This document shows, one piece after another, positions 1 through 63,557 of a DNA stretch of 64,000 nt. The translations under genes were made by a program, and so were the position numbers. The DNA lies in assembly GCA_029959195.1 (NCBI GenBank), contig CP114118.1, positions 124,001-188,000 on the forward strand. Reading direction: 5' to 3'. Positions within the stretch are counted from its first letter, which is position 1, and each line of letters begins with the position of its first letter. The notes beneath the pieces were generated by a model. That model saw nothing but the letters and a program-made list of their open reading frames with translations. It had not been told where the DNA came from and ran no database searches. Source of the DNA: Dictyophora rubrovolvata (Eukaryota; Basidiomycota; Agaricomycetes; Phallales; Phallaceae).

Positions 1-138
1 TGTTAAGCGAATGGATCAAGGCTCTAACTTGCATTATAAAGGGTTTATAAACTGTTTATAATGCAAGTTAGAGCCTTGATCTGTTTGCTTATAAACCCTT
101 TATAATGCAAGTTAGAGCCTTGATCCGTTCGCTTAACA
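1..138. mobile_element. Fold-back MITE with about 50-bp terminal inverted repeats
   Basis: The first 50 bases (beginning TGTTAAGCGAATGG) and the last 50 bases (ending CGCTTAACA) are reverse complements with one mismatch, at base 12. The right arm is partly duplicated: bases 55-91 repeat at 99-135 with two differences. There is no coding capacity, which fits a non-autonomous miniature inverted-repeat element. The left target-site duplication lies outside the window, so the family cannot be assigned. Confidence 0.8.
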
Positions 139-17882: not shown

Positions 17883-17986
17883 ATAATGTGCAAAGCCTTT
17901 CAATTTTACTACTCTATTAGTTATGCAAATAAACTAAATAAAAAAAACAAGTCCCAAGAAGGAAAAAGAAAGACCACCCCCCCGAT

Positions 17987-22502: not shown

Positions 22503-23482
22503 GGTGAAAAAAATGAGTTGATAGGTGTTGTTGTGATGTGCTTGATTGCAGTAAAAGATAGGATGTTATTGTTGGGGATTTCTGCGCAGGAGGGCTCGTG
22601 CTTCTATGTGATTCTTGTTCGAGTTGCGTCTACAGGTTTGAGGAGATGTGGTGAGTGTGGGGACATTGTATGTAGGACAAGGACTTGGGGCGATGTAATC
22701 ATGTCCGCATGTCTTTGTGCTAATTGAATGTCTGGTCATTGTCCAAGTTAGTTTACGGGTACTATCCAGAGTTGAGGTTGCACCTCGTTACTATGAGTAA
22801 TTGATTAAAATTTATTCATACTCATGCTAATTTCTAATCTACTCTAAGCTTGACAATGAGATCGTTGGCATCTATAATAAAAGCCATGGCCCTAAGTCAC
22901 TGTAACTATCTTCATATTTTCCAAAGAGTTAATTTGTGCCCCCTTTTCTTTTCATTCGTGTCATTTCATCTACTGCTCGTTATGTTTACTGTACTCGCAA
23001 ACATATACTGCCTTGTCAATGGATAATCGATTGGTCCATGTACCGAGAGAGATGTACGTATCTTAGTCGAAGTTCCATTTCAATTATGACGAATCAACTG
23101 TTGTTGTTTCGCTCGATCTTAAGAGTTAGTGTCAACCAGAAGAACGTATATATGACAAGTAATGTCACTGGCATGTCTTTCCTCAGACTCGGACTATATT
23201 AGTCGTATCAACATGTGTTACATGACTAAGACTAAAATGATGATGACTTAACATTGATTAGTTTACCTTGCAAATATAAGGTAAACTACTTTAGATGATC
23301 AAACTGGGGGATATGGATCGTAATTTGTTCGATGGTGGACGTGTGAATGATATCCTTCGACTGGCATACTTATCCGATTGTACTTACTAATCCCATGATC
23401 TCACCTAAGCTAACCACCAAGAAACTTGTTTAATTCAATTGTAAAACAGTGACATACATAAACTGTCTATAGTACTTTATAC
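22503..23482. other. Intergenic between the two duplicated units
   Basis: The segment lies upstream of the LPMO relic and downstream of the second sulfotransferase-like gene. No coding frame or repeat is recognisable. Confidence 0.3.
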
Positions 23483-24411
23483 TCAGTGCGGTTGGCTTTC
23501 CACAAATTTCTTCACTTCGATGAGAAACTCGTCCGTTGTATTCAGATGAGGAAATGGTGTATCGGGTTTTTCTCTGCTCTCGGGTTAGCTCGTGTATTTA
23601 TAAAACGAAGGAGTGAAAACGTACACTCCGAGAAAGCGAACTAATGGATCCCATCCTTGGCTAACGTCGTACTCGAGTAGTTTCTCAGCCGGAATGGTTT
23701 CTCTCACACGCTGATTGTGAGCCAAAATTGCTCCTTGTAAATCGCCAAATAATTCTAAAAGATGTTCTTGAACAAGACTGTTTGTCAAAGAGGACATGTG
23801 AGGGGGACTTTACTTTGTAGTTCGGCAGCATAAAATTTATTCAACTGACTAATAAAAGGAGTGGGATTTGAAATTTCTTTATGGCCGTTTACTGTCGGTA
23901 TCAGCGTAGCTTCCATGCTCTTTGCCCACTTGGCAGGATCCCTGGTTGACTTGAAGCCAGTAAGTGATCATGCGTCACATAGACCATCTTATTCAAGTAA
24001 AGCATACCAAAATAAATTTTGCATCAGGATACGCTTCGTACATTTTATCACAGTTAAGAGCCACGGGGAAATCTAGAAAAGAGTTGTAATCTTTCAATAG
24101 CGTTCGCAGATCGTCAAGTGTAGCCGAGCCTGATAATTAATATACATTACAACTGAACCATAAACACCAAAAAATTAAGTAATAAACAGTACCTTGACCA
24201 AGATCGTACCACATCTTAATCTCATTTACATCCTTATTATCGACAATGACTCTCATGTGATAACATGGTCCATAACCTAATTGATTCAAGGCAGCTCTCA
24301 AACTCATGGTCTTAGCTTGGAAATAAGCCAGATGAATTCAAAAACGAAACGAGGACAACATACGCCTGTTCGACCCAATCCGCAACAAATTACTTTGGGC
24401 TTGGAGCTCAT
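23483..24411 (-). CDS. Sulfotransferase-like P-loop protein (Sulfotransfer_4 type), copy 2
   Basis: This copy has the same exon layout as 20431-21386. Exon 1 from ATG 24411 encodes KPKVICCGLGRTG; the next begins with KTMSLRAALNQLGYGPCYHM. Then come DYNSFLDFPVALNCDKMYEA, YPDAKFILV joined to STRDPAKWAKSMEATLIP, HLLELFGDLQGAILAHNQRV, LLEYDVSQGW, and a last exon PDTPFPHLNTTDEF ending at Ser-Gln-Pro-His. Predicted to bind a nucleotide through the GLGRTG loop; the acceptor substrate is unknown. Coding exons are much better conserved than introns between the two copies, indicating that both were under selection for some time. Confidence 0.8.
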
Positions 24412-25037
24412 GGCTGAGAAGACTGCAGCGGTCAAACCAAGTATGTAGCGTCTGATAATTTCATATAAGGCCGTGAAACCAGTGCAAATGACCTCCGCGG
24501 GTTTCCGTCGTCGGCAAAAAGAGACCATTGCGACACTCATTCAGAGTCATCGGGTTTGGCAGGGGGAGTAACCGGGTAAAAAGTTCATTCAATTACCCAA
24601 ACGGTGAGTATTCAGTCCAATGAACTGACGACATTCGTGCTGAGAATCGTTTTGTTTTCTGGCGGTTGCCCAAAAGACGCAGAGCCAACGCAGAGCATAC
24701 TCGGAAATTGCCGTCAGGTACGGTCCGCGCGGCTCCTCGGCTACCCTCGGAGACTATTGTTTGTACGTGTCACCGTCGACGGAACAATTGTCGAACGGAC
24801 TCGGATGTGTTTTCATGATCTTCATTTATGGTACTCGATACGCAGCACTTGCTTGATGAAGGTGACAGTTCGTTTTCCAGGTGCATGTTATATCAGACTG
24901 ATGATGTAATGAAATAACTAGTAGGAAAGTCTCTGTTTCAATGAGTCGATGCCATGAGTTACACAAACAGTACCGTTGCTATAAATACGTATAAGTTTAA
25001 TACAGAGTGCTCTTGCGAGGTACTTTAAGCATGACCA
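24412..25037. other. Intergenic between sulfotransferase copy 2 and LPMO 2
   Basis: A frame at 24604-24909 shows no resemblance to a known family and no splice support. Nothing else was recognised. Confidence 0.3.
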
Positions 25038-26079
25038 TCAGCCGCGAACGTTCTTCATAATGCGACTAATGTAGCGAGGATGGTTTATTCCAGAGGAGTT
25101 TACTCCCATCAACGTGTTTCCCGCGGACATCATGTTGCAAGACGTATCATTCGACGTATCATTCGTGCCACTAACGACGTTGGAAATAGGCAGGCCTGGA
25201 AACTGGTAATCTTTCACTGGATCAAAAATCTAAACTGGTGTTAGAAGGTAAGTAGGAACTAAAGCAGCCGATGCTTACGGTTGGAACAAAAATACCGGGG
25301 TCAGTGTCATTGTAAGCACCGGGAAGTGAGACTGTAACGTTTGGCTGAACAACGGTTCCGTTGTTAGAGCTGATTCGGATTTGAGAACAGCTCGGATAGA
25401 ATTCTGCACCACCTAGTTCGTTTCCGAGGTGGAGTGCGATGATTTCATGGCGGACAAGGTAGTCTCCTGGAGGAATGTGCTCCGGAATGGTGACGTTCAC
25501 AGAGTTGCCATCGACTATGAGCCAGTAAAAAACGCTGCCACAGATATAATGGATTGGGACTTACAAAGGGCTTCCTGATGCCAGACACTAAGATTGTTTG
25601 GGAGCTGACCGGCTTCGTCGATTTTGAACCATTCAGCATTGATTGCATCGAATTCGTCACAGGTCGTATTACCACAAAGAGCCATATAGGTCATGATGGG
25701 GCCAATGTTGTGTGGCCACTTTGCAAAATATAATAAATAACGTGAAGATTCGGACAATAAAAGAACAACGTACGTTAGTATTTTCACCGCTGTGCCAATC
25801 GAAGCTAATAACACTCCTAGGGTTCGCAGGTGCAACCACTTGGGCGATCTTCGCATTCTTGCCGCAATTGATATCGCGGTTAAGAGCGCCTTTGACGGGT
25901 GTGATGTCGTCGATAAGTCGAATCGGACTCGGGTTGTTGCTTTGATTGGGGATATTTCCGGGAAAAACTTGACCATCGATGGCAATTGAAAAAAGAAAAC
26001 CGTGGGAGAGCGAGGGTGGAATCTGGGACGCTGCAAGAGCAAGAATGAAGCTGGTTGAAGATGAAAACTTTATAGTCAT
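25038..26079 (-). CDS. AA9 lytic polysaccharide monooxygenase, copy 2
   Basis: Four exons encode a secreted copper enzyme that cleaves cellulose or related glucans oxidatively outside the cell. ATG 26079 gives a signal peptide ending SLS, so the mature protein begins HGFLFSIAIDG with the His1 of the copper brace. The second brace His is in WPHNIGPIMTYMA, and the axial Tyr is in GGAEFYPSCSQIRI. The supporting His is in YLVRHEIIALH. The residue two before the Tyr is Glu, where AA9 enzymes usually have Gln. There is no CBM1; a short Ser/Asn-rich tail ends HPRYISRIMKNVR. All introns have GT...AG ends at the same sites as the 51557 gene. Confidence 0.9.
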
Positions 26080-28775: not shown

Positions 28776-29103
28776 AGTTCATGACCCAGTCCTAAGCAAT
28801 GTTTTTAATATAAAGAGCCACGAGACTTGCGCGAGATGTTCTTTTTCTTGTGAATATATAAGGAAAATTCTATGGTGGACGTCAACCAACTTGGATTAAT
28901 TGCGAAGTTATCTCAAGGGAGAGTATGCATTTGAGACAATCGACACAAAGTAAAAATTTATTTCAGCAAAGGAATTCGCCATTATATTAGTAGCTTTAAA
29001 CCTGAAATTAATGAATGAGTTTGTTGTGGGAACTCAGATTTTCGTGAAAGGCTACTTTATGCCCCATTCATGTGTCCACGTCTTTATAATTAATCCCGAC
29101 ATC
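28776..29103. other. Short convergent intergenic gap
   Basis: The gap lies between the stop codons of two convergent genes. It presumably contains both 3' untranslated regions; no other feature was seen. Confidence 0.3.
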
Positions 29104-31279
29104 TTAAACACGCCAACTTCCTCTTCGCTTCGCCAACTGCATTCGCGAGACCAACAAACAAATAGAACCAGCCAAGACTATAATCTTCAATTCGATCATT
29201 GATCATATATCTTTATCACGCTTTGTGAAAACCTGTGGTACTTACCCCACTAAATATGATGGGACGGTGCCAAGTGTAGTGCGGTGCATCAAGAAGAGCA
29301 CCCATCACCGGAGTGCCCGTTAGCAGCGTGAAACTTTCGAAAAACATCGCGACTCCGCAGCGAAAACTAGTGATATTTGACCAACGAATTAGTAGGTGTG
29401 TTATTAAAGGAAATGGAATAGGGAGGTGTGCACCCGACTTCACTAATATCATCAGCAAAAGCTGATACGGCTACCATAGATAGACCTAAAACTACAAATA
29501 TAATTATCAGCCAAATAAAGAGAAAAAGGTTATGACAAAGACAGGTGCTATTATCAACTCACTTGTCCCGGAAAAGAACCCATATAGGACTGCAAAAGTC
29601 ACTAGAGCCCCTATAGATTTGGCGGCAAACATTAAAAAAATTATTAAACCGCAACATACTCCCGTGGGACCCACAACTATATGAACTGAGCAGATCACAT
29701 AGGACATGTCTGATGTAAAATACGTACTGTTCATGGGTCCATAGAAATCACCCATAAAGTTCGGGACGATTCGACCGACGAAAGACGAGGCGTTTAAAAT
29801 GGCGATCTTTCTCATTGAGTTAGCATGCTACCTTAAAAAGGAGAGAGCTTACTGAATAAAATGCAAAGCGCATGTCTATCCCATGCAGAACAGCAAATAG
29901 TTGTAAATAGAATACTATAACAAATTTGTGTAAACCACTGGCTGAGCACATCGTGCCTATACTGACTAACATGGAAAGTATAAGCCCAAATAAATTAGAG
30001 TTAAACTATAACTCGTCGATTAATATATTTCTGGTAAGACTAGTAGCAAAAAGCATGAACATACCCCGCAACCGTCAGCAAGTAGGGGATATCCGTAAAG
30101 AGCTTTTTGAGCAACTTAAACGAGTCTTTTTTCGAAAAGCTTTTACGTCCACGGAAGCGCGGTTTCATCGTTAAATTTGCAATTAACAGTAAACCGAGGA
30201 AAATAAACCCGAGATAACTAAATTTAGTTCAACATGAATGGTTAGGGACCATTTTTGGTGGCTTATAAGTTTTCAAAGAGGAACACTTCATACATACCGG
30301 ACTCCCCAGGCGAAACCAACTCGAGAGTCATTGAACCAGTGATTCAACATGATAGAGACGAGAATTCCTGCAACGGAAGATCCTTTTAAGAATCACACAA
30401 AGGAGATTGTGTCAATGATGAATCCAATAAAAAAGGGACCGCACGAACCTGCAACGGCTACGCCCATAATGAAAGAACGTCGAACAGAAAAGTAATGTGC
30501 GATGATGGAAATCGAAGGAAGGAACATGAACCCCGATGCTAAACCGAGACCGATACCTTGAGAAAGAAATATTTCATAAAAATGATGCGACTGAGCTATT
30601 GAAAGCATGAAAAGGCTAATTAGAATAGTGTCAATGTCGAAGCTTACAGGCTCTATATTTAATTCGAGAAAAGCGTACCAAATCAAGTATAAAAGAGAGG
30701 ATGAGAAGAGTAGCAGTCTAAAATATCCCTCATCGAACAATTTCCCAGAAATTGGACTAAGCAGGAACATTAGAAAAATTTGTGTTGACCCTATCCAACT
30801 GATTTCGGACGGGGTCCGCTCGGTCAAAAAGACTCTCTGGTTATGATGCCAAGAATGAGATAGAATAAGGCGAGAGAAAGAGCTTACTGTATAAAAGTCT
30901 TGGAAAGCGCCAAATGACTGAGTAGCACCGACGGTCGTGAAGCAGATCAGTACACTACAAGTCGCATAAATGTTTATCGAAACCTGAATCATCTTAGGAA
31001 GAAGAAAAGGCATGGAACGAACCTTCCCAACACGTTCAACCATGCAACCAAGCCTCCGTCCGGAAATGTAGGTTGACTTTGCGGAAGCACTGGATCGTCG
31101 ACGGCTTGTGAACTTGTCTCTACAATGCCAAGGATTACAACTCCCGAAATGTCACTACTGCTATTATTGTCATAGTCATAGCACAGTTGACCTAGATGAT
31201 CCAGTTTTCCGAGAACAGAATCTGTGTGCAAGGCCTCCGTGTCGAGCGATGGACTCTTGGCTTTGGAGTGTTGTTGCAT
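29104..31279 (-). CDS. MFS transporter, monocarboxylate-transporter-like, copy 2
   Basis: This paralog of 15707-17882 has the same exon order and appears intact. From ATG 31279 the pieces are FPDGGLVAWLNVLGR, GATQSFGAFQDFYT, RVFLTERTPSEISWIGSTQI, SQGIGLGLASGFMFLPSISI, HWFNDSRVGFAWGVR, NLTMKPRFRGRKSF, LTLIYLGLYFP, FYLQLFAVLHGIDMRFAFYS, IAILNASSFVGRIVPNFMGD, GVAMFFESFTLLTGTPVMGA and the final SRMQLAKRRGSWRV, stop at 29104. A 12-span membrane carrier of the MCT type; the substrate is unknown. It provides the reference frame that exposes the one-base loss in copy 1. Confidence 0.85.
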
Positions 31280-40584: not shown

Positions 40585-41449
40585 TTAAGCAACATCAGAG
40601 AATGGATCATCTTCCGGGGTGACTTCAGCAACTTCCACTATAACCCTCACCACTTTTGCGAACGCCTTGCTAGTGAGATGTTCAACAAAGGCCAGTGCCA
40701 TATCTGAGCCTACGAGAAAATTTTCTGACACGAACAATAATTAACAATACTCTATCGCTTACCAGATGCGACTCCAGAGCTGGTCCATACGTTTCCATCC
40801 ACAACCCAGCGTGCCTTGTTAACCCATCGAATCTTGTCACTTGTCTGGGCCTTTTTTCGTAATAGATCAGCTCGTCGTTTTTATCTGCTAGGGCATAATA
40901 TCCAACTCACAACAATAAGTTTCAATAAATACTTGCTAGACGTCGCACGTTTTCCGTCCAGGATCCCGGCCGCAGCCAATTGGATAGACCCCGCACAGAC
41001 GGACATAACATATTTCGCTCTGGGAGCTTGCGTGCGAATGAAATCGATTTGTTCCCGTGGAATGGCGCTATGTAATGGGGCTACGCCGTCTGAAGGAAGA
41101 GGACCTGTCGAAACAGCAATTAGAGCCGAGGAAGTTCAATTGGTCGAAAAAGATCAATCATACCCGCGGGGACCCATATAACATCGTATTGAATACCTTC
41201 GTTTAGTACTTCTTTATATGTGCGCGTTGGGTTTACCGTAATTTGCACTCCAGTCAGAGAACTAATGGGCTCTTTAGTCGGAGCTATATAATCGACCACG
41301 ATCTGGTGTTTGACATCTTGGACGAGCTCTTTAGGGAACAGGGGTGAGTCGACCATGTTTACGGATGCAATGATCTCCATAGCAGGAATGAAATCAGATA
41401 AAGTAACGCCGTCGCAGACACAAACACCGATGGTGAGTTGTTGCGGCAT
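40585..41449 (-). CDS. DJ-1/PfpI superfamily protein, tandem copy 1
   Basis: Three main exons encode about 230 aa of the class I glutamine-amidotransferase-like fold. From ATG 41449: LTIGVCVCDGVTLSDFIPAM (the usual N-terminal strand with the Asp seen in isonitrile hydratase relatives), VQITVNPTRTYKEVLNEG, YDVIWVPAG, then AKYVMSVCAGSIQLAAAGIL with the nucleophile-elbow Cys in VCAG, and a last exon with DGNVWTSSGVASGMDMALAF and EDDPFSDVA. Cys plus the DGxxxTSSG motif suggest a hydratase or amidase-like cytosolic enzyme; the substrate is unknown. It heads a row of three same-strand paralogs. Confidence 0.85.
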
Positions 41450-42475
41450 TGTCGAAATATAATGTCAGCTAAGAATGCAAGATTGAAGTGCTGGGCTGGA
41501 GTTAATTGGAAGACCGTGAGCTGCCAGTATTAATACACATTTCCGAGGTCAATTAAGTAATCGTACAGTTTAAAGGGGTGTTAAAGTAGGCCCTTTCAAG
41601 GCCGTCTTACCAATCGTTTTGCTGGCCCGGGATCGTTTTCAGTGAAACGGCAGATAAAACTGCATTCGGATGAATGATATGCCATGCTTAGTATGTATCA
41701 GAACTTCAGGGACCCTACAGGGATTAACAGAAACCCTAACCGAGGCTGACCGGTCGACACATGTATGCGACATGAGGCGACATGCGTGTGTACATATGTT
41801 CTTTTTCGGTGTACATATTCCTTATCGATGTTAAACGCCTGCACTGTAACGGACGGCCGCTCATTTTTTATGCAGTTATGCAGAATTTTCTATATCCAAT
41901 TCATATCGAACAACAAGGAGATGGCATCGGCCTTCAGTCTAAATCTGCTTGACCCGTGCCTCAAGTTTCAAGCTTCAAGATCAAGCAAAGACGAACTCAA
42001 GTCACGACCATTCATTGACTATCATTTTTCCAGCAAATCGCCGAAAATCACCAAATCGATGTTCGGCATGTGTAGTAGACACGCAGGTACATAAGGGTAC
42101 ATAGTACTCGGTCTAGTTCGGCGTTGTAGTATCCGGGGCATAGATCACGATCTGAGCCCCACGACATCGAGTCTTTTTTCTTGACCTTGAATTTGTAGCT
42201 CTGAATCCTATGCTCAAAAAACCAGACAACACATACTGGTCCATTCACACCAAAGGTCGGTGCTTTTTTCATCCAACGTCTTAGCTTTATATTCAGTGCT
42301 TTTTAACCATCTCGTATTTTAGTTCCAATTGTGGGATGCGACAGTAATTGAATGGCCTGAATGAATACGACCCATGCACAACTTACACTGCTTCCTTGCG
42401 TCAAAACTGACTACATGTATCTAAATCGTGAGACAAATATGCTTTTGTATTTCAAGCTTCTTCCAATCATAAAGT
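41450..42475. other. Intergenic between DJ-1 copies 1 and 2
   Basis: No supported gene. A frame at 41765-42094 lacks family resemblance and splice support. Confidence 0.3.
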
Positions 42476-43338
42476 TTATATAAGGCCGTGGAAGGCAGCG
42501 AACGGATCATCTTCCGAGTTGGTTGTCCCAGAAACTTCGACTATACCTCTGACTGCCTGTGAAAACGCCTTGCTGGTCAAGTGCTCAAGAAAAGCCAACG
42601 CCATATCCGAGCCTACACACTAAGACCAAGTACGACACCAATAACTTTGATTATCCTTACCAGCTGAGGCCCCGGAACTAGTCCAGATATTGCCATCTAT
42701 AACCCAGCGTGCCTTTGCGACCCATTCAATCTTGTTGCTTGTCTGACTCTTTTATCACAAATCGAGTTCAGTGTTCTTTTCATGTATGATCGCTGTTGGC
42801 TGACTTACTACAATAGCTTTAAAGAGAGATTTGTTAGTCGTCGCGCGTTTTCCATCCAGTAAACCAGCTGCAGCTAGCTGGATAGATCCTGCACAAACCG
42901 ACACGACAAACTTCGCCTTCGGAGCTTGCTTCCGGATAAAGTCTATTTGTTCTTTTGGGATTGCACTCTGCAAAGGCTGTGTCGTGAAGTCCAGTGGAAT
43001 AGGACCTGTCGAAATTATTGGGAGGAAGTCTTACCAGCCGATCAATCCATACCTGCGGGAATCCATAAAATATCATATTGAACACCTTCATCCAGTACTT
43101 CACGGTATGTGCGCGTCGGGTTTACCGTAATTTGCATTTGAGTCAAAGAATGAACGGGCTCTTTGGTCGGTGCTACATAATCGATTGCGAGCCTATACTT
43201 GACATCCTTGGCGATTTCTGCAGGGAACATGGACGTTTCGGCCATATTTACTGATCCAAGGATCTCCATGGGAGGGATGAAATCAGTTAAGGTTACTCCG
43301 CTACAAATGCAGACTGCGAGAGCGAGCGTTTGTGTCAT
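42476..43338 (-). CDS. DJ-1/PfpI superfamily protein, tandem copy 2
   Basis: From ATG 43338: LALAVCICSGVTLTDFIPPM, then PTKEPVHSLTQMQITVNPTR, YDILWIPAG, IDFIRKQAPKAKFVVSVCAG with SIQLAAAGLLDGKRAT, WVIDGNIWTSSGASAG and a C terminus EDDPFAAFHGLI. The catalytic-type Cys (VCAG) and the N-terminal Asp are kept. Exon borders match copies 1 and 3. Its C-terminal tail FAAFHGLI is nearly identical to that of copy 3, so these two are the closer pair. Confidence 0.85.
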
Positions 43339-44008
43339 CGTTGTACGTAGTATGAGTATGGTTTAGTAACTGGAGGATGTAGAAGCCGGGCTGTCATATT
43401 AACGCTTCACGTTCCAGTTCTTATACAGTATTCGCATCAATGAATTACGTGTGGCGCTATCACTTCGTAGTGACGTGCTGATCAAGCTTCAGGTCTGTGT
43501 GCAACGCCCACTTTCGCTTCTGTGTCCATACTAAGAACCTCATTACATATTCTCGTCTTGTGATTCCCTGAAAGGTAAGCACTTCGTGCTCTTTATGAAA
43601 TTAATGCTTCTATTGTAAGTCCCAAGGTGCTCAAGCGCTTAACAACTACATTGAGAAGTTCAAAAGGGTGGGAACCCGGACTTTCCTTTTTTATATCACG
43701 GCTTCAACTTACCCAAACATTCACTTGGATCGGATATTACCTACGTATGTTTGCTGAGTCTTATTCCGGGATTGCAACAATCAATTACGTTGTCAATCCT
43801 TGGCACTGAGTACTGAGTACTGGACCTTAAGCTTGGCAACGTACACGGATGAAACCAACCATGGCACCTGGATAATAGTTGAATATGGCTTATTGGCTAA
43901 GGTATTTAGCATTACTCGGTCAGACTAAGGCTAAGCTAATTTAGTTTATTGCGTATTTCCCAGTGTGACAGACGACCCTGTGTGCTATATAAAGCTCTTT
44001 AGAAGGAT
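43339..44008. other. Intergenic between DJ-1 copies 2 and 3
   Basis: Nothing recognisable beyond likely promoter sequence of copy 2. Confidence 0.3.
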
Positions 44009-44911
44009 TTAAATAAGGCCGTGAATCGCAGCAAATGGGTCGTCCTCGGAATTGCTCGATCCATTAACTTCGGCTCTACCTCTAACTACTTCAGAAAATT
44101 CTTTACTTATTAAATGCTCAAGAAACGCCAGTGCCATATCTACGCCTATAGAAGTCATGAAGAGTTATCAAGGTATAAGACCGTATGCCAGACACTAGGT
44201 TTGAGATCGTATCACGTACCAGCCGAGACTCCGGAACTGGTCCATACATTTCCGTCCACAACCCAGCGTGCCTTGGCAACCCATTGAATCTTGTTGCTTG
44301 TTTGGCTCTTTTGTCACAACCAGGTCAATATCCTACTCATACATGGTTTGCGGGAAAAGACTTGACTTACCACAATAGCTCTATAGAAGGCTTTGTTGGT
44401 CGTTGCACGTTTTCCATCCAATAAACCCGCCGCGGCTAACTGAACCGACCCTCCGCAGACGGACATGACATACTTGGCCTTGGGAGCTTGCTTCAAAATA
44501 AAATTGATCTGTTCCTGTGGGGTACTACTCGATAATGGGATTGTTGGATCCATAGGAATGGGACCTTTTTAATTGCAACCGGAATTAAAGACCCATAAAT
44601 TCACAAGTGCATCAATCCATACCAGCAGGAATCCATATAATATCATACTGAACGCCTTCGCCCAGAGCTTCGCTGTATGTGCGCGTCGGATTTACCGTAA
44701 TTTGCATCGGGCTCATTGCATGAATAGGCTCTTTGGTCGGGGCTATATAATCAATTGCGAATCTGTACTTGATATTATTGAGCAGTTCTGCGGGGAAGAT
44801 CCCGGGCAAATCGGCCATGTTCACTGAAGAAAGGATCTCCATTGGAGGGATGAAATCAGAAAGAGTAACACCATTACAGATGCAAACGGCGATGGTGAGG
44901 GTTTGAGACAT
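44009..44911 (-). CDS. DJ-1/PfpI superfamily protein, tandem copy 3
   Basis: From ATG 44911: LTIAVCICNGVTLSDFIPPM, YRFAIDYIAPTKEPIHAMSP, VQYDIIWIPAG, QINFILKQAPKAKYVMSVCG with GSVQLAAAGLLDGKRAT, a last exon with WVVDGNVWTSSGVSAG and EDDPFAAIHGLI. The nucleophile elbow reads VCGG rather than VCAG, but the Cys remains. An upstream in-frame ATG at 44965 is possible; 44911 aligns with the starts of the two other copies. The gene is oriented head-to-head with the mpaB-like gene, about 870 bp apart. Confidence 0.85.
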
Positions 44912-45784
44912 TGCTGAATAGGTCTTGGTTGAAAAGTGAAGTTGGGCTCTAGAGAAAGTGTTCATTTTTTGGGATGTTTTTATATCCTGTTCAAACTAGT
45001 CATTTGATGATTACAATATCATTGCCTGTGGCAACGCAGCACTGTCGACGCGTTCGTCCGGCCATTCGCTGCGCAACTGCGATCTTTTCTTCAGCAATTA
45101 GTTCAGTCAATGGCAGCACCTCCATTGATAAATCGACTGATCAAGATACTTAAGTTAGTCTTAACCTCTGGGGTATTTTAATAACCTTTGACCTATCGTC
45201 CATTCATGAATCAGGAGCAAGTTCATTCACGGAGTGAAAACACTTATTCACTGGCAATGTAAAAGTATTACTTAAGTACGTGCCAGGCGCTATTTATAAG
45301 CCGCTGATAATCATGATCTCAGCTTGATTGGCGCGGTGACATGTGTCGGAAATTTGAAATCGAATTCGCAACACAACTTGAGCACAACACAACATGAGGG
45401 GAATATACTTCTTGAATTAGTGCAAGGGATTCCGGATTGTTCCACGACTGCCGTTTCGCCGTTTCACCAGCCGTTTCACTGAAATTGAAACGGACAGCGA
45501 ACGCCGAAATGGTCTTGAAATGGCCTACTCTGACGTACCCTAATGCCTAATGATGCACCCGTGACTTTCATTGGCTAACTTAACCCTTTCCCATCAATAG
45601 ACAGCGCCTCAATTCAAATTAAACACCAGGTGACACCACAAAGACTTTTAAGCTCTCCAAACTTCCAGGACCAACTCTCTTGCAGCCTTCCCTGAAAAGG
45701 CCCGGGTTTGATTTTGAAGGCTCAACGAAAACACCTAAACAATCAGATAGAGCCAATTTGAGGGCTTTGCAGCACGTCCTTGAG
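44912..45784. other. Divergent promoter region of DJ-1 copy 3 and the mpaB-like gene
   Basis: No coding frame is supported. Short GC-rich palindromic words (for example cgccgtttcaccagccgtttcactg near 45450-45480) could be regulatory, but I cannot assign a factor. Confidence 0.3.
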
Positions 45785-51117: not shown

Positions 51118-51556
51118 TAACTGGATTTTTCCATTCGCCCAACGGCATCCCTGAAAGTCAAGGTCAAGGACTAGTAGGATATTGAAGAATATGGACAACA
51201 AAGGCGGCTTCGGTTGGGGGACGTTGGTATAAGCTTGATGTCGGAGCTAGAATTATAACAATTACGTAATAATCAGTGAACAATTGGAATCCCTTTAATT
51301 TCTTTTTTTTTTTCTACGTCCCTTGTTTGATTGATATGGTCCCGTCCTGCTCTTATGTTGTTCCTTCAACAATGAATTTCGTTGTCCACAGCCTAATATT
51401 GCCCTAATGAAAACCTGGACAAAATGGGAATGAAAGCTATAAAAGTGAGTTATTGTGCTCAAGCGATCTAACACAATAACTTTTCTTCCCACCAAAAACT
51501 GACCCACTACTCAAAAACATTTCCTTTTCGCTTATCTCTCATACTCCCTATCGAAT
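51118..51556. other. Promoter region of LPMO 3
   Basis: A pyrimidine-rich stretch precedes the ATG (51530-51550). A tataaaa-like sequence lies at 51438-51446. No other feature. Confidence 0.35.
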
Positions 51557-52627
51557 ATGAAATACTCAACTAGCTTCGCACTTGCTCTGGCAGCATCGAT
51601 AGCTCCCTCCGCTCTCTCACACGGCTTTCTAGCTTCTATCGCAATCGACGGGAAGGTTTTCCAAGGGAACGTTCCTAACCAAGGAAATTCCCCCAGTCCA
51701 ATTCGTGTGATTGACGATATCACCCCAGTCAAAGGAGCCAACAATCGCGATGTAAATTGTGGCAAAAATGCTGTTATCGCCTCGATGGTTGCTCCTGCCC
51801 ATCCTGGTAGTGTTGTTAGTTTCGACTGGCATAGCGGTGAAAATACAATTGTATGTTCCTCGTTTTTTTATCACGTATGCGCTAAAGCTCATGCTGACTT
51901 TTTTCACCAGTGGCCACATAATATTGGTCCCATGATGACCTATATGGCTGTTTGCGGCAACACGACTTGCGACCAATTCGACGCGATCAACGCTCAATGG
52001 TTCAAGATTGATCAGGCAGGCCAACTTCCAAACAATCTCAGCGTCTGGCAGCAACAGGCCCTTTGTGAGTCTGCATGGCTTGATTTGATTCGGATGTCAT
52101 TAACATGTTATATTTCAGTCGAAGGTCAATCTGTCAATGTCACCCTTCCTCAGAATATTGCCCCAGGCGACTACCTTCTCCGCCACGAAATCGTTGCTCT
52201 TCATCTAGGCAACGAACCTGGCGGAGCTGAATTCTACCCGAGCTGCTCTCAAATTCGTATCAGCTCCAATAACGGTACAGTGGTAGAACCTAATGCCACT
52301 GTTTCCCTTCCCGGTGCTTACAGTGATAAAGATCCTGGTATTTTCGTTCCGACTGTGAGCTGTCTCTCAATTATAAACCTGCGTTCTGTTTTTCATTATC
52401 ATTTTTCTCCACAGATTTTCGACCCTGTTCAGAACTATCAATTTCCCGGACCCTCTATCTCTAACGTCGTCACTGGCGTAAATTCTATGTCTTCCGCCAA
52501 CACGACATCCGCTATACCCGCGTCAAGTGCACCAAAGGCCACAACTATGCCCAAAGCTTCTTGTGCCGTTCGTCCCCGTCAAATAAGTCGTGTCATGAGA
52601 AACTTTCGCTACGCGACTAAATTCTAG
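51557..52627 (+). CDS. AA9 lytic polysaccharide monooxygenase, copy 3
   Basis: Four exons (51557-51850, 51911-52064, 52119-52354, 52415-52627) give 298 aa. The signal peptide ends SALS, so mature His1 is residue 22 (HGFLASIAIDG). The second copper His is residue 101 (WPHNIGPMMTYMA), the supporting His is 172 (LLRHEIVALH), and the axial Tyr is 189 (GGAEFYPSCSQI). Residue 187 is Glu where most AA9 enzymes have Gln. A C-terminal Ser/Thr/Ala-rich extension of about 50 residues ends in a basic tail; no CBM1. Predicted to be secreted and to oxidise crystalline polysaccharide. Close paralog of the 25038-26079 gene, 25 kb away. Confidence 0.93.
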   Translation: MKYSTSFALALAASIAPSALSHGFLASIAIDGKVFQGNVPNQGNSPSPIRVIDDITPVKGANNRDVNCGKNAVIASMVAPAHPGSVVSFDWHSGENTIVCSSFFYHVCAKAHADFFHQWPHNIGPMMTYMAVCGNTTCDQFDAINAQWFKIDQAGQLPNNLSVWQQQALCESAWLDLIRMSLTCYISVEGQSVNVTLPQNIAPGDYLLRHEIVALHLGNEPGGAEFYPSCSQIRISSNNGTVVEPNATVSLPGAYSDKDPGIFVPTVSCLSIINLRSVFHYHFSPQIFDPVQNYQFPGPSISNVVTGVNSMSSANTTSAIPASSAPKATTMPKASCAVRPRQISRVMRNFRYATKF

Positions 52628-53011: not shown

Positions 53012-53519
53012 ATGTCCTCAGCGGCGAAAGAATCAGTATAAAGCCCTTATAACCAACCCTCTCACATGAGCTCATACTTTTCTAGTCTGATACGCTCTCT
53101 TCTCGTGCCGTCCTTCTCGAAGCCGAAATTACCAGCTTGCAAAGAAAGTTAGAGGAGCTGGGCGAGTGAGTCATAAGCACATTCTAGCTCGTGAAATTCT
53201 TCATAATCTACTACGATCAAATTTGACGTTCGAAGATATGACCCGGAACAACTTGTCGGTCAGCATATTCATTTGCTTCATCAGTATAACGAAGTGAAAG
53301 ATGCTACGCAGGTGAGTTTCCGAATGTACTGCACCAATTAACATACATATGATGTTACTCACGCATACTGCTCAATTTAAACAGTTATTGATAGGAAAGG
53401 TAGGTGATAGTGGTTTGTTAACGTAATTCATAGGCCGACAAGACTTTTAGCTCGCAGCTCTTCAGCAAGTCACGGTAAAGGAGCTGCATGAAAAATATGG
53501 ACTCACGAACGAAGATTGA
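53012..53519 (+). CDS. swi5: Swi5/Sae3 recombination mediator, five exons, 87 aa
   Basis: Exons 53012-53035, 53086-53165, 53236-53311, 53385-53399 (only 15 nt) and 53451-53519 sum to 88 codons with stop and keep frame. The N-terminal half is a coiled-coil-like helix (AVLLEAEITSLQRKLEELGE). The C-terminal half carries the Swi5 signature: DPEQLVGQHIHLLHQYNEVK, LLIGKLAALQQ and KELHEKYGL. S. pombe Swi5 is 85 aa, so the length fits. Swi5 with Sfr1 (Sae3-Mei5) stimulates Rad51/Dmc1 strand exchange in the nucleus. No single open frame reveals it, because the exons are so short. Start chosen at the ATG giving MSSAAKES before the first intron. Confidence 0.85.
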
Positions 53520-54220
53520 ACTATTATGTATTTGAGCTTGTTCATTCTCAAATGGAAAAACTATCTATGTACAGCTTATTAGGTGTCTCTCAAAATATAT
53601 GTATTACAAATGCCTAAGATGATACAGCCTTACAATAGGGGATTTACCACTATGTGAAATTGGAACCTCATAACCATCATTTTTCGAAACGCATACCAAA
53701 GCGGGTAAGGAAAACTTAAAAGACCGTTATAAAATTCTCGGACGGCTTTGATCAGACGTTTGCGAATCGTTCAGTGTTTCTGCGTTAGCCCCCCAGCTTG
53801 TTAAACTTCAAGGTCTAGAATTTGGCGAAATTGCAGCAGGGATAAGAAGAACTGATTGAGTCCACCATCCGAATCGGATCGCAGCTCAGGACTAAGTACT
53901 CAGTCCTTAGCAGGGATTCCTAGTTCTTTTCCTTTGTCAACACGAGTAACAACGTCGAGATTCTGCGAGGTAAGTATTTTATTTTTAATCGTTATGAAAT
54001 TGTTTCACCCACCGTAAAATATAAATCAGAGAATGAAACTGGGTCTGTTCCGGTTGGGAAGGGTTCAGGCCGGACCCAGGGGCATCATATCAATACTCAT
54101 AGTATGTATATGCACCCTATCCCACCCTTTTGATTCTGTTCACAATCAGATTGATAGACGAACCTTCGCCTAAGAGAATGCGTCGATGAGCGTCGAAACA
54201 TGCCCGGTACTACATGTCTC
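53520..54220. other. Intergenic, nothing recognised
   Basis: No coding frame. The final part may belong to the 5' flank duplicated with the micro-exon locus, but similarity becomes clear only from about 54221. Confidence 0.3.
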
Positions 54221-54713
54221 GATGAACCCCACAGAATACGATATACCTGAATTCTAACTCCTTTGATTGGAGGACAAACCTGTCATCACGTATCTCGGAG
54301 CTCTTAGGCTTTCCGCTCCGGATTGTTCTCGTGACTGGAACACGTTTGAAATTAGGATTGCGGAACAACGTCTGAAGCATCAGAGCAAATCAAAGTATAT
54401 AGCGGGTCTAATCAACGCTCACATTTATATCATCATTTTACTCTTCCTCCCCGGAATTACTGAGTGGTCAAGTCATGTCGTTTTTGAGCCGGCTTAACAG
54501 AATACATATACTGGTTTAATTGACCTCAATACATCGAGTTCCCGGCCAAATCTCCTAGCATTTCGAAAATTTCCCCTTTCTTTATATAATACTGACAGTA
54601 GAAGACCTTCGATTTGATGTGTTCTTGTAGCACGTACTAATAAACCATTAAGTGACTGTGTACACAAGTCGTTCTGAATGATTTCTCATAATTCTAGCAA
54701 GTTGCTACATGAC
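54221..54713 (+). repeat. Flank-only relic of a micro-exon peptide locus
   Basis: Bases 54221-54395 resemble 62215-62405, the 5' flank of the 62553 peptide gene (shared words gatgaaccc, aatacgata, tctcgga, ctcttaggctt, ttgcggaacaacgtc). Bases 54451-54713 resemble 63286-63557, its 3' flank (ctcgagttccc-like, gtcaaatctcct, cacttcgaaaatttc-like, gacagtagaag). The two flanks are only about 55 bp apart here but 880 bp apart at the gene, so the coding part is missing. Confidence 0.7.
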
Positions 54714-58760: not shown

Positions 58761-60005
58761 TTCCGCCGTTTTCGTCTTGGGTGTGATTAACCGCGCTTTG
58801 AGCAGACATCTGATAAAGTTTTTTTTTTTTTTTGCAGGGGATAAATCGCACGAAAGCGGATATGGAATAAAGGGACATGAACGTTATTTATCATCGAACA
58901 AAGTTATGAAAGTAAACCTATTTACCGATGTATTGTCGGACATCGTCCCGACCTACGATGTTCGTTCCCCCATGTTACCTTGCGATCTTTTTATGCCATG
59001 AATTCAACAGCAACGTTGATTTGTTTTGAAAAGTTGTGCTTACTTTCAAAGTTCTTGTAGGACATCAATCCTTGAAGACGTTACCTTGCTAAGAAGTTAA
59101 AGATATGGGCAAAGTATTATCCGAGTCTCCGTAACCACAAACATCCCAAATCTACGATAGGATTTACCGGATGGAAGGAGCGAATGTAACCTTGACTACG
59201 CACTGCAAAGCTCCTTGATCGTTTGATCGCAGCAACCCTCGAGAGGATTTACCCTCGAACAGTTTAAATAATGCATAAGGCTACAATAAAAAAACAGCAT
59301 CAAGTTAGCAATAGTGTTACATAAAGCAAGACACGTTGTATTTACCGCCATCTTTTGCTAAATAAAATACCTCATATGGATTCGTCGATTCACCACTTTC
59401 TTACCATCCTTCTGTTTGTGTTAAGCAATATTGTTCAGCATCCATACTGCGATAAAGTACTTACCTTTTCAGTAAGTGATGCAAGAGCACACGTCATACA
59501 AACCAACTGAAGTTCGAAAAACACCGAACCTATATAATCAATATCCAATAAGCCTCACAATTACATTGTAACATGATAACTCAGTTGAGCGACCCAACGA
59601 ACTTATATAAGCCAGAAGAGATGGATTCCTGCAGGTGGAGAGAGGTGGTCGTTCAATGGAGAAGCATCCGAGTCAAATTATGTAAGGGCCAACTTCCAAG
59701 GCGAACTCCGACAATTTTCCAGGTTCCTGCTGGGTTGAAGTTGGACGGTTCCTGCTTACACGACTCGATAGCGTACGTCGTCAAAACCAGCAGCAATATG
59801 ATTTTAGGAGGAAAGAATATATCATTGTATAATTTAAAGCACATAATAAAGATACAGCGCTATCCATCAAACAATTTTGTAGCGTTAGTGCGTTACGTGT
59901 TACATACAGAAAAAAATTCGATTTCTTTAGATTCACAAGTATTGATAGGAGAAATATCCAGGTACTTGGGATCGGAGATATCACTGAGACACGGCTGTGG
60001 TTAGA
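58761..60005. other. Sparse region downstream of micro-exon gene A
   Basis: A 143-codon + strand frame at 59573-60004 has no recognisable domain and abuts the last exon of the opposite-strand micro-exon gene. I do not support it as a gene. Confidence 0.3.
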
Positions 60006-60620
60006 TCACCTGCCATGAATGGATAGAAGGCGAGCACTCACAAAAACTATGAAACAGTTACATATATAATCAGTAGTCAGAATCAACGGACAAGACCAGA
60101 CACTTACAGATGTCTAATATATATAAGCAATCAGAGAAAAAAAAATTCGAAATTAGAGCGACGCATTTCATCAAGCGTTCTACTTACTTTCATCTGTGAT
60201 TAAATTGGAAAAGTGATTAGACTAACGTAATGATTATAAGACTCTCAGACTTACCAAGTGGATTTAAATCAAGGGAAACTAATTCTAAATTAGAATTAGA
60301 AAGTAGTTTCCTTTGTTTGTTAGTATACTCACCCCGTTCGATATGGGCAGGGACTATAAAAAACTCATGAGAAATGAAAGCAGTCAACAATACGAGTGAA
60401 CATACCATTTGATGAGAAGTCTTGGAATAAGAGCTGAGATGTGAACACTGACGACAATTAGCTGAGTTACTCACCATTTTCAGGAACTGTGAACGAATAT
60501 CAAATCCATTGGGTAAGGGTACAAAACTCAAACTGAAAAAAACTCACCAGGGGAAGCAGTCACAGAGACTAAAAGGATGGAGAGAAGAGCAACGAAGAAA
60601 GTGGACCTGGTGAATTGCAT
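60006..60620 (-). CDS. Micro-exon gene A: small secreted peptide precursor
   Basis: Eight exons: 60548-60620, 60475-60486 (12 nt), 60406-60420 (15), 60333-60353 (21), 60255-60278 (24), 60188-60193 (6), 60108-60113 (6) and 60006-60046. Every intron has GT...AG ends and is phase 1. Exon 1 encodes a signal peptide (FFVALLSILLVSVTASP). The rest reads VPEN, DFSSN, VPAHIER, VSLDLNPL, DE, NI and FFVSARLLSIHGR, about 65 aa in total. The first three exons match gene B at 62553 in length and nearly in sequence (VPEN; DF-SN). The two 6-nt exons are the weakest calls. The product is probably a secreted, possibly further cleaved, peptide of unknown role. Confidence 0.6.
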
Positions 60621-62214
60621 GTTGAGTTGAGATTTGAGGAGAATGGTTGAAAGAGCAGGGTAATGAAAATAGAACTCTTAAGAGTACAGAATGAAGATGA
60701 GTGCTGAGGACGGTTTATTGGAGGTTGATTAAATATCCTCTGATTGCATAACCTGAATGAGTATCCGGTTCGAAGTTCAACGTCATCAGCTTCCGAGTGT
60801 ATTTGTTTCGGAAGATTTTGGAAATTCAGCCCGCATTCTCGCCTCATTTGATTTCCCTATTTCACAGTCCTGACTTGAAAAATACAGGAAATAGTTAATA
60901 TAAACAATGGTGGATTCATTAGGGTGTTCATGGAAACGTTAAAAGATAGTGTGATAGATGGCATCTATATTGTAGTCTTTCTCTTCCGCGTGATGTCCCC
61001 TCGAAAGAACCCTGAGCGAAACGGAGCAGTAGGGATGTAGTTCGATTGGTAATATCAGCGCAATTACCCGATTCTACCGACTATCAGGGGTGCGTTTCCA
61101 TTAGGTGATATGATGCAATGATACCGGTCCGGAAGCTTTCCGCGCGGAATTGTTGTCATCCTAAATAGCTAGAGTAAATTAAATACTTCAATTATGCAGA
61201 CAAGCAACAAATAACCTAACACGCAGCGTTGAGCGAGGAAACTCCTTGAACTAGATAGGGTATGATGTCCAAATTCTGTAGGAATGCCGAAAAAGACATC
61301 CGATCTGAATTACACGTGGCTTGATTTGGACAAGGAATTCGATTCACAGCCTAGACGGACTTGTGTCGGACCTCTCAGGGTGCAGAGAGACTTGGGTCCT
61401 ATATATGTAGCGTCTTGCTAGCAGCCTCCTCAACCCAGTAGTATCCTGTATTTAATGAATTATTTGTCTGACATCCTATAGACTATCAATGTGAATATAC
61501 AATTGTTTACACTCAGGACAAAAGAATTTTGACATTTTGACATCACTTGGGGTAGAGTCTTAGAAAGATGGCCAATGGACTCACTCACTGGCAATTTCTA
61601 GGGTTCTAAATCGGATCTGTTTTTTGAGGCAAGCTGAAGGGCTTGTTCTCATGGTTAATGGACCTTTTGATGGTTGAAAACACATGCAAGGAAACGGCGC
61701 CTGCGGCTGTGGTAGGGCATCATGACATCGTTGGGGTATGAATCTAGGTTCAAATTATTGAGACGGAGCGGAAATGAGGGCTGTCATTCTTTTATGAAAT
61801 TTATTGCTCATGGGAGAAGCGACTTACCATGAAGCAGTGAAAGAACTACATAAGGTTAAGTATGCTCAGAATACGAACATACGGTGTTGAATTTTGATCT
61901 CCATATCATGATTCACGAGTTAAAGGATTCTTGCTATTTGCTTCTGGTTGTATTTTCAAGTCAGAACTATGTTAAGCTAGGGAGACTTGCTCTTAGAAAA
62001 GAAGAAACGACAACGAGAATGAAGTGGAAAAGCGAAAAAGAGTGATGTAAGCAAAGGCGCCAGCGGTACGTGTGACAGGGTGTCCAGGGATATCAACATC
62101 CATGTTAAAGTATATCATCCTTACGCACATTTTCGTCCCTGTTTACAGTTGGTGGAGAGCCTAAATACGTCAACGGGACAGCATTGCCAGGGTCACCGGT
62201 AGGTCTTGAATCTT
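60621..62214. other. Region between the two micro-exon genes
   Basis: It includes the promoters of both genes. No coding frame is supported; the sequence is AT-rich with no clear repeats. Confidence 0.3.
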
Positions 62215-62405
62215 GATGAACCCTAAGAAATACGATATGCCTGAAAAGTTTTATTTCTTTGATTACACTGGCAGAACAAATTTCATCCGAATACCTACAT
62301 CTCGGAACTCTTAGGCTTCTCCCTCCCAGATTGTTATGTTCTCACAGACTGGGACATGTTTGAAGTTAGAATTGCGGAACAACGTCATCATCAGAACAGG
62401 TGAAA
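62215..62405 (+). repeat. 5' flank of micro-exon gene B, duplicated at 54221-54395
   Basis: Shared words with the 54.2-kb relic occur in the same order over about 180 bp. In this copy it lies 150-340 bp upstream of the start codon of a secreted-peptide gene, so it may include promoter sequence. Confidence 0.65.
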
Positions 62406-62552
62406 GAGAATACTCAGGTCTTTCAATTAGACAACTGAATCCCGAAAGATAGGGGGCGCTATATCTGTTGCAAAAAGTATTTAAACCGCTTCCAAACAGC
62501 CTATCTCCTCACTCATTCAACCGACGTTTTCCCTCAAACCTCAGACATCAAC

Positions 62553-63163
62553 ATGCAATTCAAATCTGCTTTCTTTGTTACTCTTTTCTCAGTTCTCCTG
62601 CTGTCTGTTGTTGCTTCCCCCGGTACGAATCTTACCAGTTTTGGATTTGTTGTACACTTGCTCAATGAATTTAAAAATTCGTTCATAGTTCCGGAGAATG
62701 GTGAGTTATTTAACTAGTGGCTCAAGCGTTCTCCATTTTCTTAATTACTTCTCCTAGACTTTGTATCAAATGGTACGCTTAATTCACTGATGAATGCTTT
62801 CATCATCCATGATATATGATACTTAGCTAATCCTTCAGTACCCGCTGACGTCGAAGGTGGTGAGTATATTGACACCTATGACAGACGAAAAAACCAAATG
62901 CTCACATTGTTTAGAAAACATTGGTGAGATGATAGAACACTGAGCAAATCAAAATGATATTCAATCGTTCTCCCAGTTTCCGATAATCTCAAACGCGGCG
63001 GGCGTAAGTATACTGACCTCTAACGTGTGTCAGAATTCATGTACTTATGTTACTTAGTTTTTACTTTCCCACTGTTAAACGATGGCGGCGGTGAGTCCGA
63101 CAGTTCTAAGAAGGTTTGTTTGATCTAACCATTATTCCAATTGAACTAATTATAGGTAAGTAA
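62553..63163 (+). CDS. Micro-exon gene B: small secreted peptide precursor with Kex2-type site
   Basis: Eight exons: 62553-62622, 62689-62700 (12 nt), 62758-62772 (15), 62827-62859 (33), 62915-62923 (9), 62977-63003 (27), 63058-63090 (33) and 63156-63163. All seven introns are 53-66 bp, GT...AG and phase 1, so every internal exon is a multiple of three. Exon 1 is a signal peptide (FFVTLFSVLLLSVVASP). Then VPEN, DFVSN, ANPSVPADVEG, ENI, VSDNLKRGG and LFTFPLLNDGG follow, with Gly-Lys and a stop. The Lys-Arg would allow Kex2 cleavage, releasing GGLFTFPLLNDGGGK. Total about 68 aa. The last tiny exon is uncertain, since its sequence (gtaagtaa) also looks like a donor. Confidence 0.65.
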
Positions 63164-63285
63164 AACGTTAGAGATCTACGGAATACATCATTCTGATTCC
63201 GTTTGATGATCCCGTACTTACCGGTAGATAGTAAGTAGTTTATCTTGACCATTGGTTTTGGCTACTGATTTTCACGTAACATTCC

Positions 63286-63557
63286 CCAGAATTCGTGAGT
63301 GCTCAGTTCATGTCATTTTTAGCTGGCTTATTAAATCACATACGTATACTATTCAGTAATGTTTTGACCTCAAAACCTCGAGTTCCCCGGTCAAATCTCC
63401 TGGAGTAGCACTTCGAAAATTTCTCCTTTCTTTTTGTAATATTGACTGTAGAAGATCTTTGACTTGTATGACTTGTACCAAGTACGAATAAATTATTGAG
63501 CCAATGTTTTACACAAATCGGTCCGGAATAATTCCTATTATGATTCGTGCTATGTAG
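63286..63557 (+). repeat. 3' flank of micro-exon gene B, duplicated at 54451-54713
   Basis: It is collinear with the relic copy over about 260 bp (shared gtcaaatctcct, cgaaaattt, tcctttcttt, ttgactgtagaag-like). No coding frame. Confidence 0.65.

What the first reader, a model, noticed from the sequence alone, without database searches (positions are those of the whole stretch)
60006..63163. A pair of micro-exon genes for tiny secreted peptides, all introns phase 1
Two genes in opposite orientation each encode a signal peptide followed by 6-7 exons, most of 6-33 nt, all internal exons divisible by three and all introns phase 1. Exons 2 and 3 are shared (VPEN, then DF-SN) while later exons differ in number, order and sequence. 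This layout lets exons be skipped, duplicated or swapped without breaking frame, like the micro-exon genes of schistosomes, a device for making variable secreted peptides. I know of no described fungal system of this form, though novelty is an inference.
Basis: partly seen in the sequence, partly recalled or inferred. Interest (0 to 1): 0.9.

Follow-up and report, generated by a model that had tools for sequence, protein, structure and literature searches.

The report
Secreted-peptide genes built from tiny exons
Two neighbouring fungal genes each seem to encode a very short secreted peptide whose message is cut into pieces of only 3 to 33 letters, most of which could be left out without garbling the rest, a gene plan known from parasitic worms and aphids.

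Summary
The observation largely holds, with corrections. Two divergent paralogues (A, minus, 60620-59981; B, plus, 62553-63359) carry a signal-peptide-like exon, then micro-exons of 3-33 nt between introns of 52-74 nt. The two densest GTRAGT donor clusters of the 64-kb window are these genes (7 each; next 3). With the widest site rules the intron chains are 10 (B) and 8 (A); 60 shuffles reach 7 at most, once. At the 14 non-terminal intervals, 17 of 17 acceptor candidates (17 of 20 under looser rules) give exons divisible by three. Exons 1-4 evolve under protein constraint between A and B (dS 1.42, dN 0.17), exons 2-4 alone too. Both genes probably end through a 5-nt exon and one phase-0 intron directly before the stop; so 16 of 18 introns, not all, are phase 1. 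One 6-nt exon of A is missing in B, leaving abutting introns. A third copy has lost its body. Best reading: real genes for acidic, cysteine-free secreted peptides of about 32 and 44 residues. Alternative splicing is possible but unshown. Very short exons are already reported in mushroom-forming fungi; this single-phase secreted layout was not found there in my limited searches.

The parts
60548..60620 (-). Gene A exon 1: start codon and signal-peptide-like segment MQFTRSTFFVALLSILLVSVTASP, ends phase 1
   Evidence: aligned with B exon 1
60475..60486 (-). Gene A exon 2, 12 nt (VPEN)
60406..60420 (-). Gene A exon 3, 15 nt (DFSSN), weak AAG acceptor
60333..60353 (-). Gene A exon 4, 21 nt (VPAHIER)
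60255..60278 (-). Gene A exon 5, 24 nt (VSLDLNPL); a second in-frame acceptor 6 nt upstream gives 30 nt
60188..60193 (-). Gene A exon 6, 6 nt; absent in B
60108..60113 (-). Gene A exon 7, 6 nt
60042..60046 (-). Gene A exon 8, 5 nt; moves the frame from phase 1 to phase 0
59981..59983 (-). Gene A stop codon TGA, first bases of the last exon
62553..62622 (+). Gene B exon 1: start codon and signal-peptide-like segment MQFKSAFFVTLFSVLLLSVVASP, ends phase 1
62689..62700 (+). Gene B exon 2, 12 nt (VPEN)
62758..62772 (+). Gene B exon 3, 15 nt (DFVSN)
62839..62859 (+). Gene B exon 4, 21 nt (VPADVEG); an in-frame upstream acceptor gives 33 nt (from 62827)
62915..62923 (+). Gene B exon 5, 9 nt (ENI), no counterpart seen in A
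62977..63003 (+). Gene B exon 6, 27 nt (VSDNLKRGG, holds a KR pair)
63058..63090 (+). Gene B exon 7, 33 nt (LFTFPLLNDGG)
63155..63156 (+). Zero-length exon: abutting introns AG|GTAAGT at the place of A's 6-nt exon 6
63228..63230 (+). Gene B exon 9, 3 nt
63290..63294 (+). Gene B exon 10, 5 nt; moves the frame to phase 0
63357..63359 (+). Gene B stop codon TAA, first bases of the last exon
63487..63492 (+). AATAAA downstream of B; the relic copy has one at 54639
54204..54409 (+). Relic third copy, 5' arm, 69% identical to B's upstream flank 62196-62421
54448..54686 (+). Relic third copy, 3' arm, 75% identical to 63283-63536; gene body missing, the splice sites in the kept part lost

Best explanation
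A and B are real, duplicated protein-coding genes, probably of a mushroom-forming fungus. Each makes one very short secreted peptide (about 32 and 44 residues after an assumed signal-peptide cut, acidic, no cysteine) from a coding sequence of 165 or 198 nt cut by 8 or 10 short introns (52-74 nt). Shown from sequence: the splice-site array, exon lengths divisible by three, protein-level constraint on exons 1-4 between the paralogues, and frame-preserving exon differences. Inferred: the short introns are recognised as units (intron definition), so exons of 3 nt, even zero, cost little; because each internal exon but the last is symmetric 1-1, whole exons can be gained, lost or skipped without a frameshift. 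The conserved part (ASP-VPEN-DF.SN-VPA) would act in secretion and as a pro-region, and the faster-changing exons after it would supply the variable C-terminus; in B a KR pair could allow Kex2 cleavage. Most likely splicing is largely constitutive, with minor in-frame variants at the tandem acceptors and at A's weak exon 3.
For: Donor clusters and intron chains beyond shuffles. 17 of 17 acceptor candidates divisible by three in the 14 non-terminal intervals. Length differences are multiples of three in 8 of 8 exon pairs and 1 of 7 intron pairs. Nei-Gojobori on the 39 aligned codons of exons 1-4: 19.0 changes at 29.8 synonymous sites against 13.0 at 87.2 non-synonymous sites; exons 2-4 alone 8 at 11.3 against 5 at 36.7; Fisher on rounded counts p 1.2e-6 and 3.9e-4. 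In the frame shifted by one the synonymous excess is slight, by two it is reversed (2 and 3 of 38 codons with stops were left out). CTNAY branch-like motif in 15 of 18 introns against a shuffle mean of 5.8, 0 of 1000. Aligned in-frame stop right after the last acceptor in both genes. Splice sites in the kept part of the relic copy are lost. A 15-nt exon in the conserved Swi5 gene of the same window.
Against: No transcript. By raw nucleotide identity exons (62-83%) are not more alike than gap-aligned introns (68-82%); the coding case rests on the kind and frame of the changes. Exons after exon 4 are too divergent to test for coding constraint. A's exon 3 rests on an AAG acceptor; with introns of 40 nt allowed it has a 28-nt rival that breaks the frame. 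B's exon 5 may be absent from the mRNA. With the looser motif YTNAY the introns are not significantly enriched (16 of 18; 70 of 1000 shuffles as high). No Pfam match for the peptides. No signal-peptide predictor was run; only a hydrophobic stretch was measured. Only two copies of one genome were compared.
Confidence: 0.78

Rival explanations
1. Micro-exon-gene-like device: regulated skipping of symmetric micro-exons makes a repertoire of different secreted peptides from each gene.
For: Non-terminal internal exons all symmetric 1-1 in the model; tandem in-frame acceptors at two exons and one weak acceptor; A and B differ by whole exons.
Against: No isoform data. 14 of 18 donors are GTRAGT and 12 of 14 non-terminal intervals have a single HAG candidate, which suits constitutive splicing. 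Single-phase introns can also come from common descent or from selection against frameshifts after exon loss (inference).
Confidence: 0.15
2. A Kex2-processed secreted signalling-peptide precursor: the conserved segment is a pro-region and the C-terminal exons are the mature peptide.
For: KR pair in B exon 6 followed by GGLFTFPLLNDGGDKF; the whole predicted mature part is acidic, pI 4.05 in both.
Against: A has no dibasic site after its signal segment; no repeated cores as in Kex2-processed repeat proteins (definition recalled); no peptide data.
Confidence: 0.3
3. Decaying genes: a small secreted-protein gene rich in introns that is losing its function, as the relic copy did.
For: One copy is dead; A's exon 3 acceptor is weak; the C-terminal exons diverge freely.
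Against: Both genes keep an open spliced frame and a low ratio of non-synonymous to synonymous change over exons 1-4.
Confidence: 0.08
4. A chance array of splice-like motifs, or an unspliced open frame over part of the region (for example 62439-62717 +).
For: Intron 1 of B is 66 nt without a stop, so read-through is open there. With the widest site rules shuffles reach chains of 7 once in 60.
Against: The corresponding intron of A is 61 nt and shifts the frame; no shuffle reached the chain of A (8) or of B (10); the coding signal follows the spliced frame.
Confidence: 0.04

Closest known systems
Micro-exon genes (MEGs) of Schistosoma mansoni (PMC10526429 and PMC8293314, passages)
   Same: Signal peptide followed by many short exons, mostly divisible by three, encoding secreted and variable proteins.
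   Different: Probably fungal; introns 52-74 nt instead of 100 to almost 5000 nt; neither printed MEG sequence motif is present; isoforms not shown. A few MEG exons are also not divisible by three, so the 5-nt exon is no difference.
Bicycle genes of aphids (PMC9168663, passages)
   Same: Secreted effector proteins from many small internal exons, nearly all of one phase.
   Different: Bicycle internal exons are phase 2, here phase 1; about 17 exons on average; these peptides have no cysteine (the cysteine motif of bicycle proteins is recalled).
Short exons in Agaricomycetes: Phlebia radiata (PMC6540522, one passage) and P450 genes of Phanerochaete chrysosporium (PMC1184071, passages)
   Same: Exons of a few codons or less are reported there as common; the P450 paper also reports frequent introns of 45-55 bp.
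   Different: There short exons belong to larger genes; here nearly the whole coding sequence after the signal segment is micro-exons of one phase.
Xlr2 microexon of Trichoderma virens (PMC11121469, abstract and passages)
   Same: A microexon in a filamentous fungus.
   Different: One regulated microexon in a transcription factor. The paper also says that microexons had been tested in Schizosaccharomyces pombe.
Abutting introns and stwintrons (PMC6616335 and PMC9024468, passages)
   Same: B has two introns without an exon between them, a type said to be removed by recursive splicing.
   Different: Not nested, so not a stwintron; here a paralogue shows a 6-nt exon at the same place.

Membership tests
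Schistosome micro-exon genes | Most internal exons short and symmetric | tested here: met
   A: 12, 15, 21, 24, 6, 6 nt; B: 12, 15, 21, 9, 27, 33, 0, 3 nt; last internal exon 5 nt in both
Schistosome micro-exon genes | N-terminal signal peptide | tested here: inconclusive
   Strongly hydrophobic 12-residue core in both; no dedicated predictor run
Schistosome micro-exon genes | Long introns (100 to almost 5000 nt) | tested here: not met
   52-74 nt; definition
Schistosome micro-exon genes | Conserved motif after the signal peptide (two clade forms) | tested here: not met
   By eye on the peptides: no Trp and no LFL in either, so neither printed form fits
Schistosome micro-exon genes | Variant peptides by alternative splicing | not testable with these tools
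   No transcripts; only potential tandem acceptors
Aphid bicycle genes | Internal exons of phase 2 | tested here: not met
   Phase 1; definition
Kex2-processed repeat proteins | Repeated cores separated by dibasic sites | tested here: not met
   One KR in B, none in A; definition recalled
Stwintrons | Internal intron interrupts a splice element of an external intron | tested here: not met
   63155/63156 reads AG|GTAAGT, two abutting introns; definition
Known Pfam family | Match to a curated profile | tested here: not met
   0 families at E up to 1 for A, B and the longer B form

The most novel reading that the evidence does not exclude
A fungal counterpart of micro-exon genes: a family of secreted-peptide genes in mushroom-forming fungi whose symmetric micro-exons are combinatorially skipped and exchanged to vary the secreted peptide, with micro-exons shrinking to zero length and leaving recursive splice sites as an intermediate of exon loss.
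Probability: 0.17. Interest if true: 0.88.

Novelty: new variant of a known kind. Interest (0 to 1): 0.6.

Why it matters
Only 165 of 640 nt (A) and 198 of 807 nt (B) are coding, so the message is cut on average about every 18 to 20 nt. Gene finders would tend to miss or misbuild such genes (inference), so a class of secreted fungal peptides may be hidden in existing annotations. The pair also gives a natural comparison of a 6-nt exon with a zero-length exon at the same place, which makes the route of micro-exon birth or loss testable. A further lineage in which secreted peptides adopted single-phase micro-exons, besides schistosomes and aphids, would point to a general evolutionary reason.

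Tried and rejected
Tandem exon duplication inside a gene: of 57 exon-plus-intron unit pairs the best two were reached by 3 and 2 of 200 shuffles, not significant after so many tests. Further family members in the window: blastn with both genes against the window with both genes masked gave one significant match, the relic (E 7e-26; the next best 0.58); the relic's 5' arm was found by self-comparison. tblastn with both peptides gave nothing significant (best E 0.12 for A, 0.46 for B; the output had been cut before the rows of B). A structured RNA in the introns: no Rfam match at gathering score anywhere in the window. DELD proteins of Piriformospora indica: considered from memory; the 12 passages shown of 23 give proteins of 101-135 aa and do not mention tiny exons. 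No structure prediction was run.

Paper searches for a fungal precedent: 10 of 10 listed; 25 of 1,932; 25 of 213; 15 of 107; 0; 1; 10 of 10; 1. I saw titles and the start of abstracts there and passages only of the papers named in this report; the long lists were capped, so absence is weakly tested. PMC4545319 and PMC4014442 (one passage each) mention microexons only as a read-mapping option; PMC5126111 gave only entries of its reference list.

I lowered the observation verdict from confirmed to partly confirmed.

Full report
What was given. The finding describes two opposed genes at 60006-63163 with a signal peptide and a run of phase-1 micro-exons. No genome is held for the window. The window carries a Plavaka transposase fragment and an AA9 oxidase; from general knowledge these point to a mushroom-forming fungus (Agaricomycetes), which I did not test.

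Is it there? Yes, with changes. I read both strands, aligned A with B and built explicit models. A runs from 60620 to 59981 on the minus strand: exons of 73, 12, 15, 21, 24, 6, 6 and 5 nt and a last exon that opens with TGA. B runs from 62553 to 63359 on the plus strand: exons of 70, 12, 15, 21, 9, 27, 33, 0, 3 and 5 nt and a last exon that opens with TAA. Introns are 52-74 nt; 16 of 18 are phase 1, the last of each gene phase 0. The peptides are MQFTRSTFFVALLSILLVSVTASPVPENDFSSNVPAHIERVSLDLNPLDENIFF (A) and MQFKSAFFVTLFSVLLLSVVASPVPENDFVSNVPADVEGENIVSDNLKRGGLFTFPLLNDGGDKF (B).

More than chance? GTRAGT occurs 45 times on each strand of the window; each gene holds 7 in 700 nt, the next best independent stretch 3, and 200 shuffles gave maxima of 2 to 6. 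Chains of intron plus micro-exon depend on the site rules. With YAG acceptors they reach 7, 10 and 5 in B and 5, 5 and 6 in A for three donor sets, with at most 3, 4 and 4 in 60 shuffles over both strands; with exon lengths divisible by three, 6, 9 and 4 in B and 4, 4 and 5 in A against at most 3. A suffers there because its exon 3 follows AAG. With HAG acceptors and GTRNGT donors A reaches 8 and B 5 against at most 4; with GTRNG[TAC] donors A reaches 8 and B 10, while shuffles reach 3 to 7 (7 once in 60) and the rest of the window 5; with lengths divisible by three A 7 and B 9 against at most 5.

Exon lengths. With donors fixed, introns of at least 45 nt and HAG acceptors, all 17 candidates of the 14 non-terminal intervals are divisible by three. 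If the intervals were independent the chance would be 2e-7, or 6e-6 if the three shared exons count once. Allowing GAG or introns of 40 nt gives 17 of 18 each, both together 17 of 20. CTNAY lies near the 3' end of 15 of 18 introns (shuffle mean 5.8; 0 of 1000 as high), CTRAY in 10 of 18 (1 of 1000), while the looser YTNAY (16 of 18; 70 of 1000) is not significant.

Is it coding? Over the 39 aligned codons of exons 1-4, A and B differ at 63.7% of synonymous and 14.9% of non-synonymous sites (dS 1.42, dN 0.17). Exons 2-4 alone show 8 changes at 11.3 synonymous against 5 at 36.7 non-synonymous sites. In the frame shifted by one the figures are 29% and 24%, by two 13% and 31%, with 2 and 3 of 38 codons left out because they held stops. 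Fisher tests on rounded counts give 1.2e-6 and 3.9e-4. Exon pairs differ in length by multiples of three in 8 of 8 cases (four differ by 0; one pairing, A exon 5 with B exon 6, is uncertain), intron pairs in 1 of 7; A intron 4 was left out for want of a sure partner. Against this, raw nucleotide identity is no higher in exons (62-83%) than in gap-aligned introns (68-82%), so the coding case rests on the kind and frame of the changes. Exons beyond the fourth are too different to test.

The 3' ends. The alignment shows a shared GTGAGT after a 5-nt exon in both genes and an aligned acceptor followed at once by TGA or TAA, in the frame that the 5-nt exon sets. I therefore prefer the spliced end, which makes the last intron phase 0.

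The zero-length exon. At the place of A's 6-nt exon 6, B reads TTATAG|GTAAGT, with matching introns on both sides (A intron 5 with B intron 7, z 4.9; A intron 6 with B intron 8, z 2.4). B may remove 137 nt in two steps or in one; the mRNA is the same. Abutting introns removed by recursive splicing are a known type (PMC6616335, passage).

A third copy. 54204-54409 and 54448-54686 match B's upstream flank and its 3' end, with the gene body missing. The acceptor and donor of the 5-nt exon and the last acceptor, kept in A and B, are lost there (alignment), as expected for a dead copy.

Background. A Swi5 gene in the same window (PF07061, E 6.8e-18 for the joined peptide) contains a 15-nt exon, so this genome uses micro-exons elsewhere. 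In print, very short exons are called typical of Phlebia radiata genes (PMC6540522, one passage) and microexons are noted in P450 genes of Phanerochaete chrysosporium (PMC1184071, passages). The Trichoderma Xlr2 paper says that functional microexons had not been described in filamentous fungi before, and that they had been tested in fission yeast (PMC11121469, abstract and passages).

How it works. Recalled knowledge: fungal introns are short and are recognised as units, so tiny exons need no special help. Inference: a duplicated secreted-peptide gene carries symmetric 1-1 exons; exons can then be lost, gained or resized in frame, which is what A and B show. The conserved ASP-VPEN-DF.SN-VPA part looks like a signal and pro-region; the variable C-terminal part would be the product. 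The KR in B suggests Kex2 cutting there, but A lacks it. Regulated exon skipping, as proposed for schistosome micro-exon genes (PMC8293314, passage), is possible and untested.

What it is like. The layout works like schistosome MEGs (PMC10526429, passages) but fails on intron length and motif; bicycle genes use phase 2 (PMC9168663, passages). It is not filed as a member of either. My searches for a fungal precedent showed none in an open-access library; three of the lists were capped, and subscription papers were not covered.

Verdict. The genes are very likely real; the exact exon set is likely; function beyond secretion is inferred. Interest 0.6.

Noticed in passing
window 53244-53519 (+): Swi5 gene with a 15-nt micro-exon at 53385-53399; the Pfam match of the joined peptide spans it.
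   Followed up: yes
window 54204-54686 (+): Relic copy of the B locus flanks with the gene body missing.
   Followed up: partly
window 59552-60001 (+): Open frame of 150 aa antisense to the 3' end of gene A, no Pfam match at E up to 1.
   Followed up: partly
window 1540-1584 (+): Weak tblastn match of both peptides around SSPIPENRY (E 0.22 and 0.46, chance level).
   Followed up: no
window 1917-2203 and 8472-8758: Repeat of 287 nt at 95% identity, the second copy near a Plavaka transposase fragment at 9271-9789.
   Followed up: no
window 1-138: The first 138 bases match their own reverse complement at 80%.
   Followed up: no
window 16220-17884 and 29101-30838: Diverged inverted duplicate in two pieces (64-65% identity); the open frames look like membrane transporters (impression, not searched).
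   Followed up: no
window 20440-21392 and 23486-24417: Duplicate at 74% identity; a fragment at 20712-21098 matches Sulfotransfer_4.
   Followed up: no
window 40596-44913: Three paralogous stretches at about 69-71% identity; the three fragments searched had no Pfam match.
   Followed up: no
window 22357-22505, 25273-26058, 51566-52360: Two long related stretches and a fragment; only the one within 51503-52624 was searched and matched AA9.
   Followed up: no
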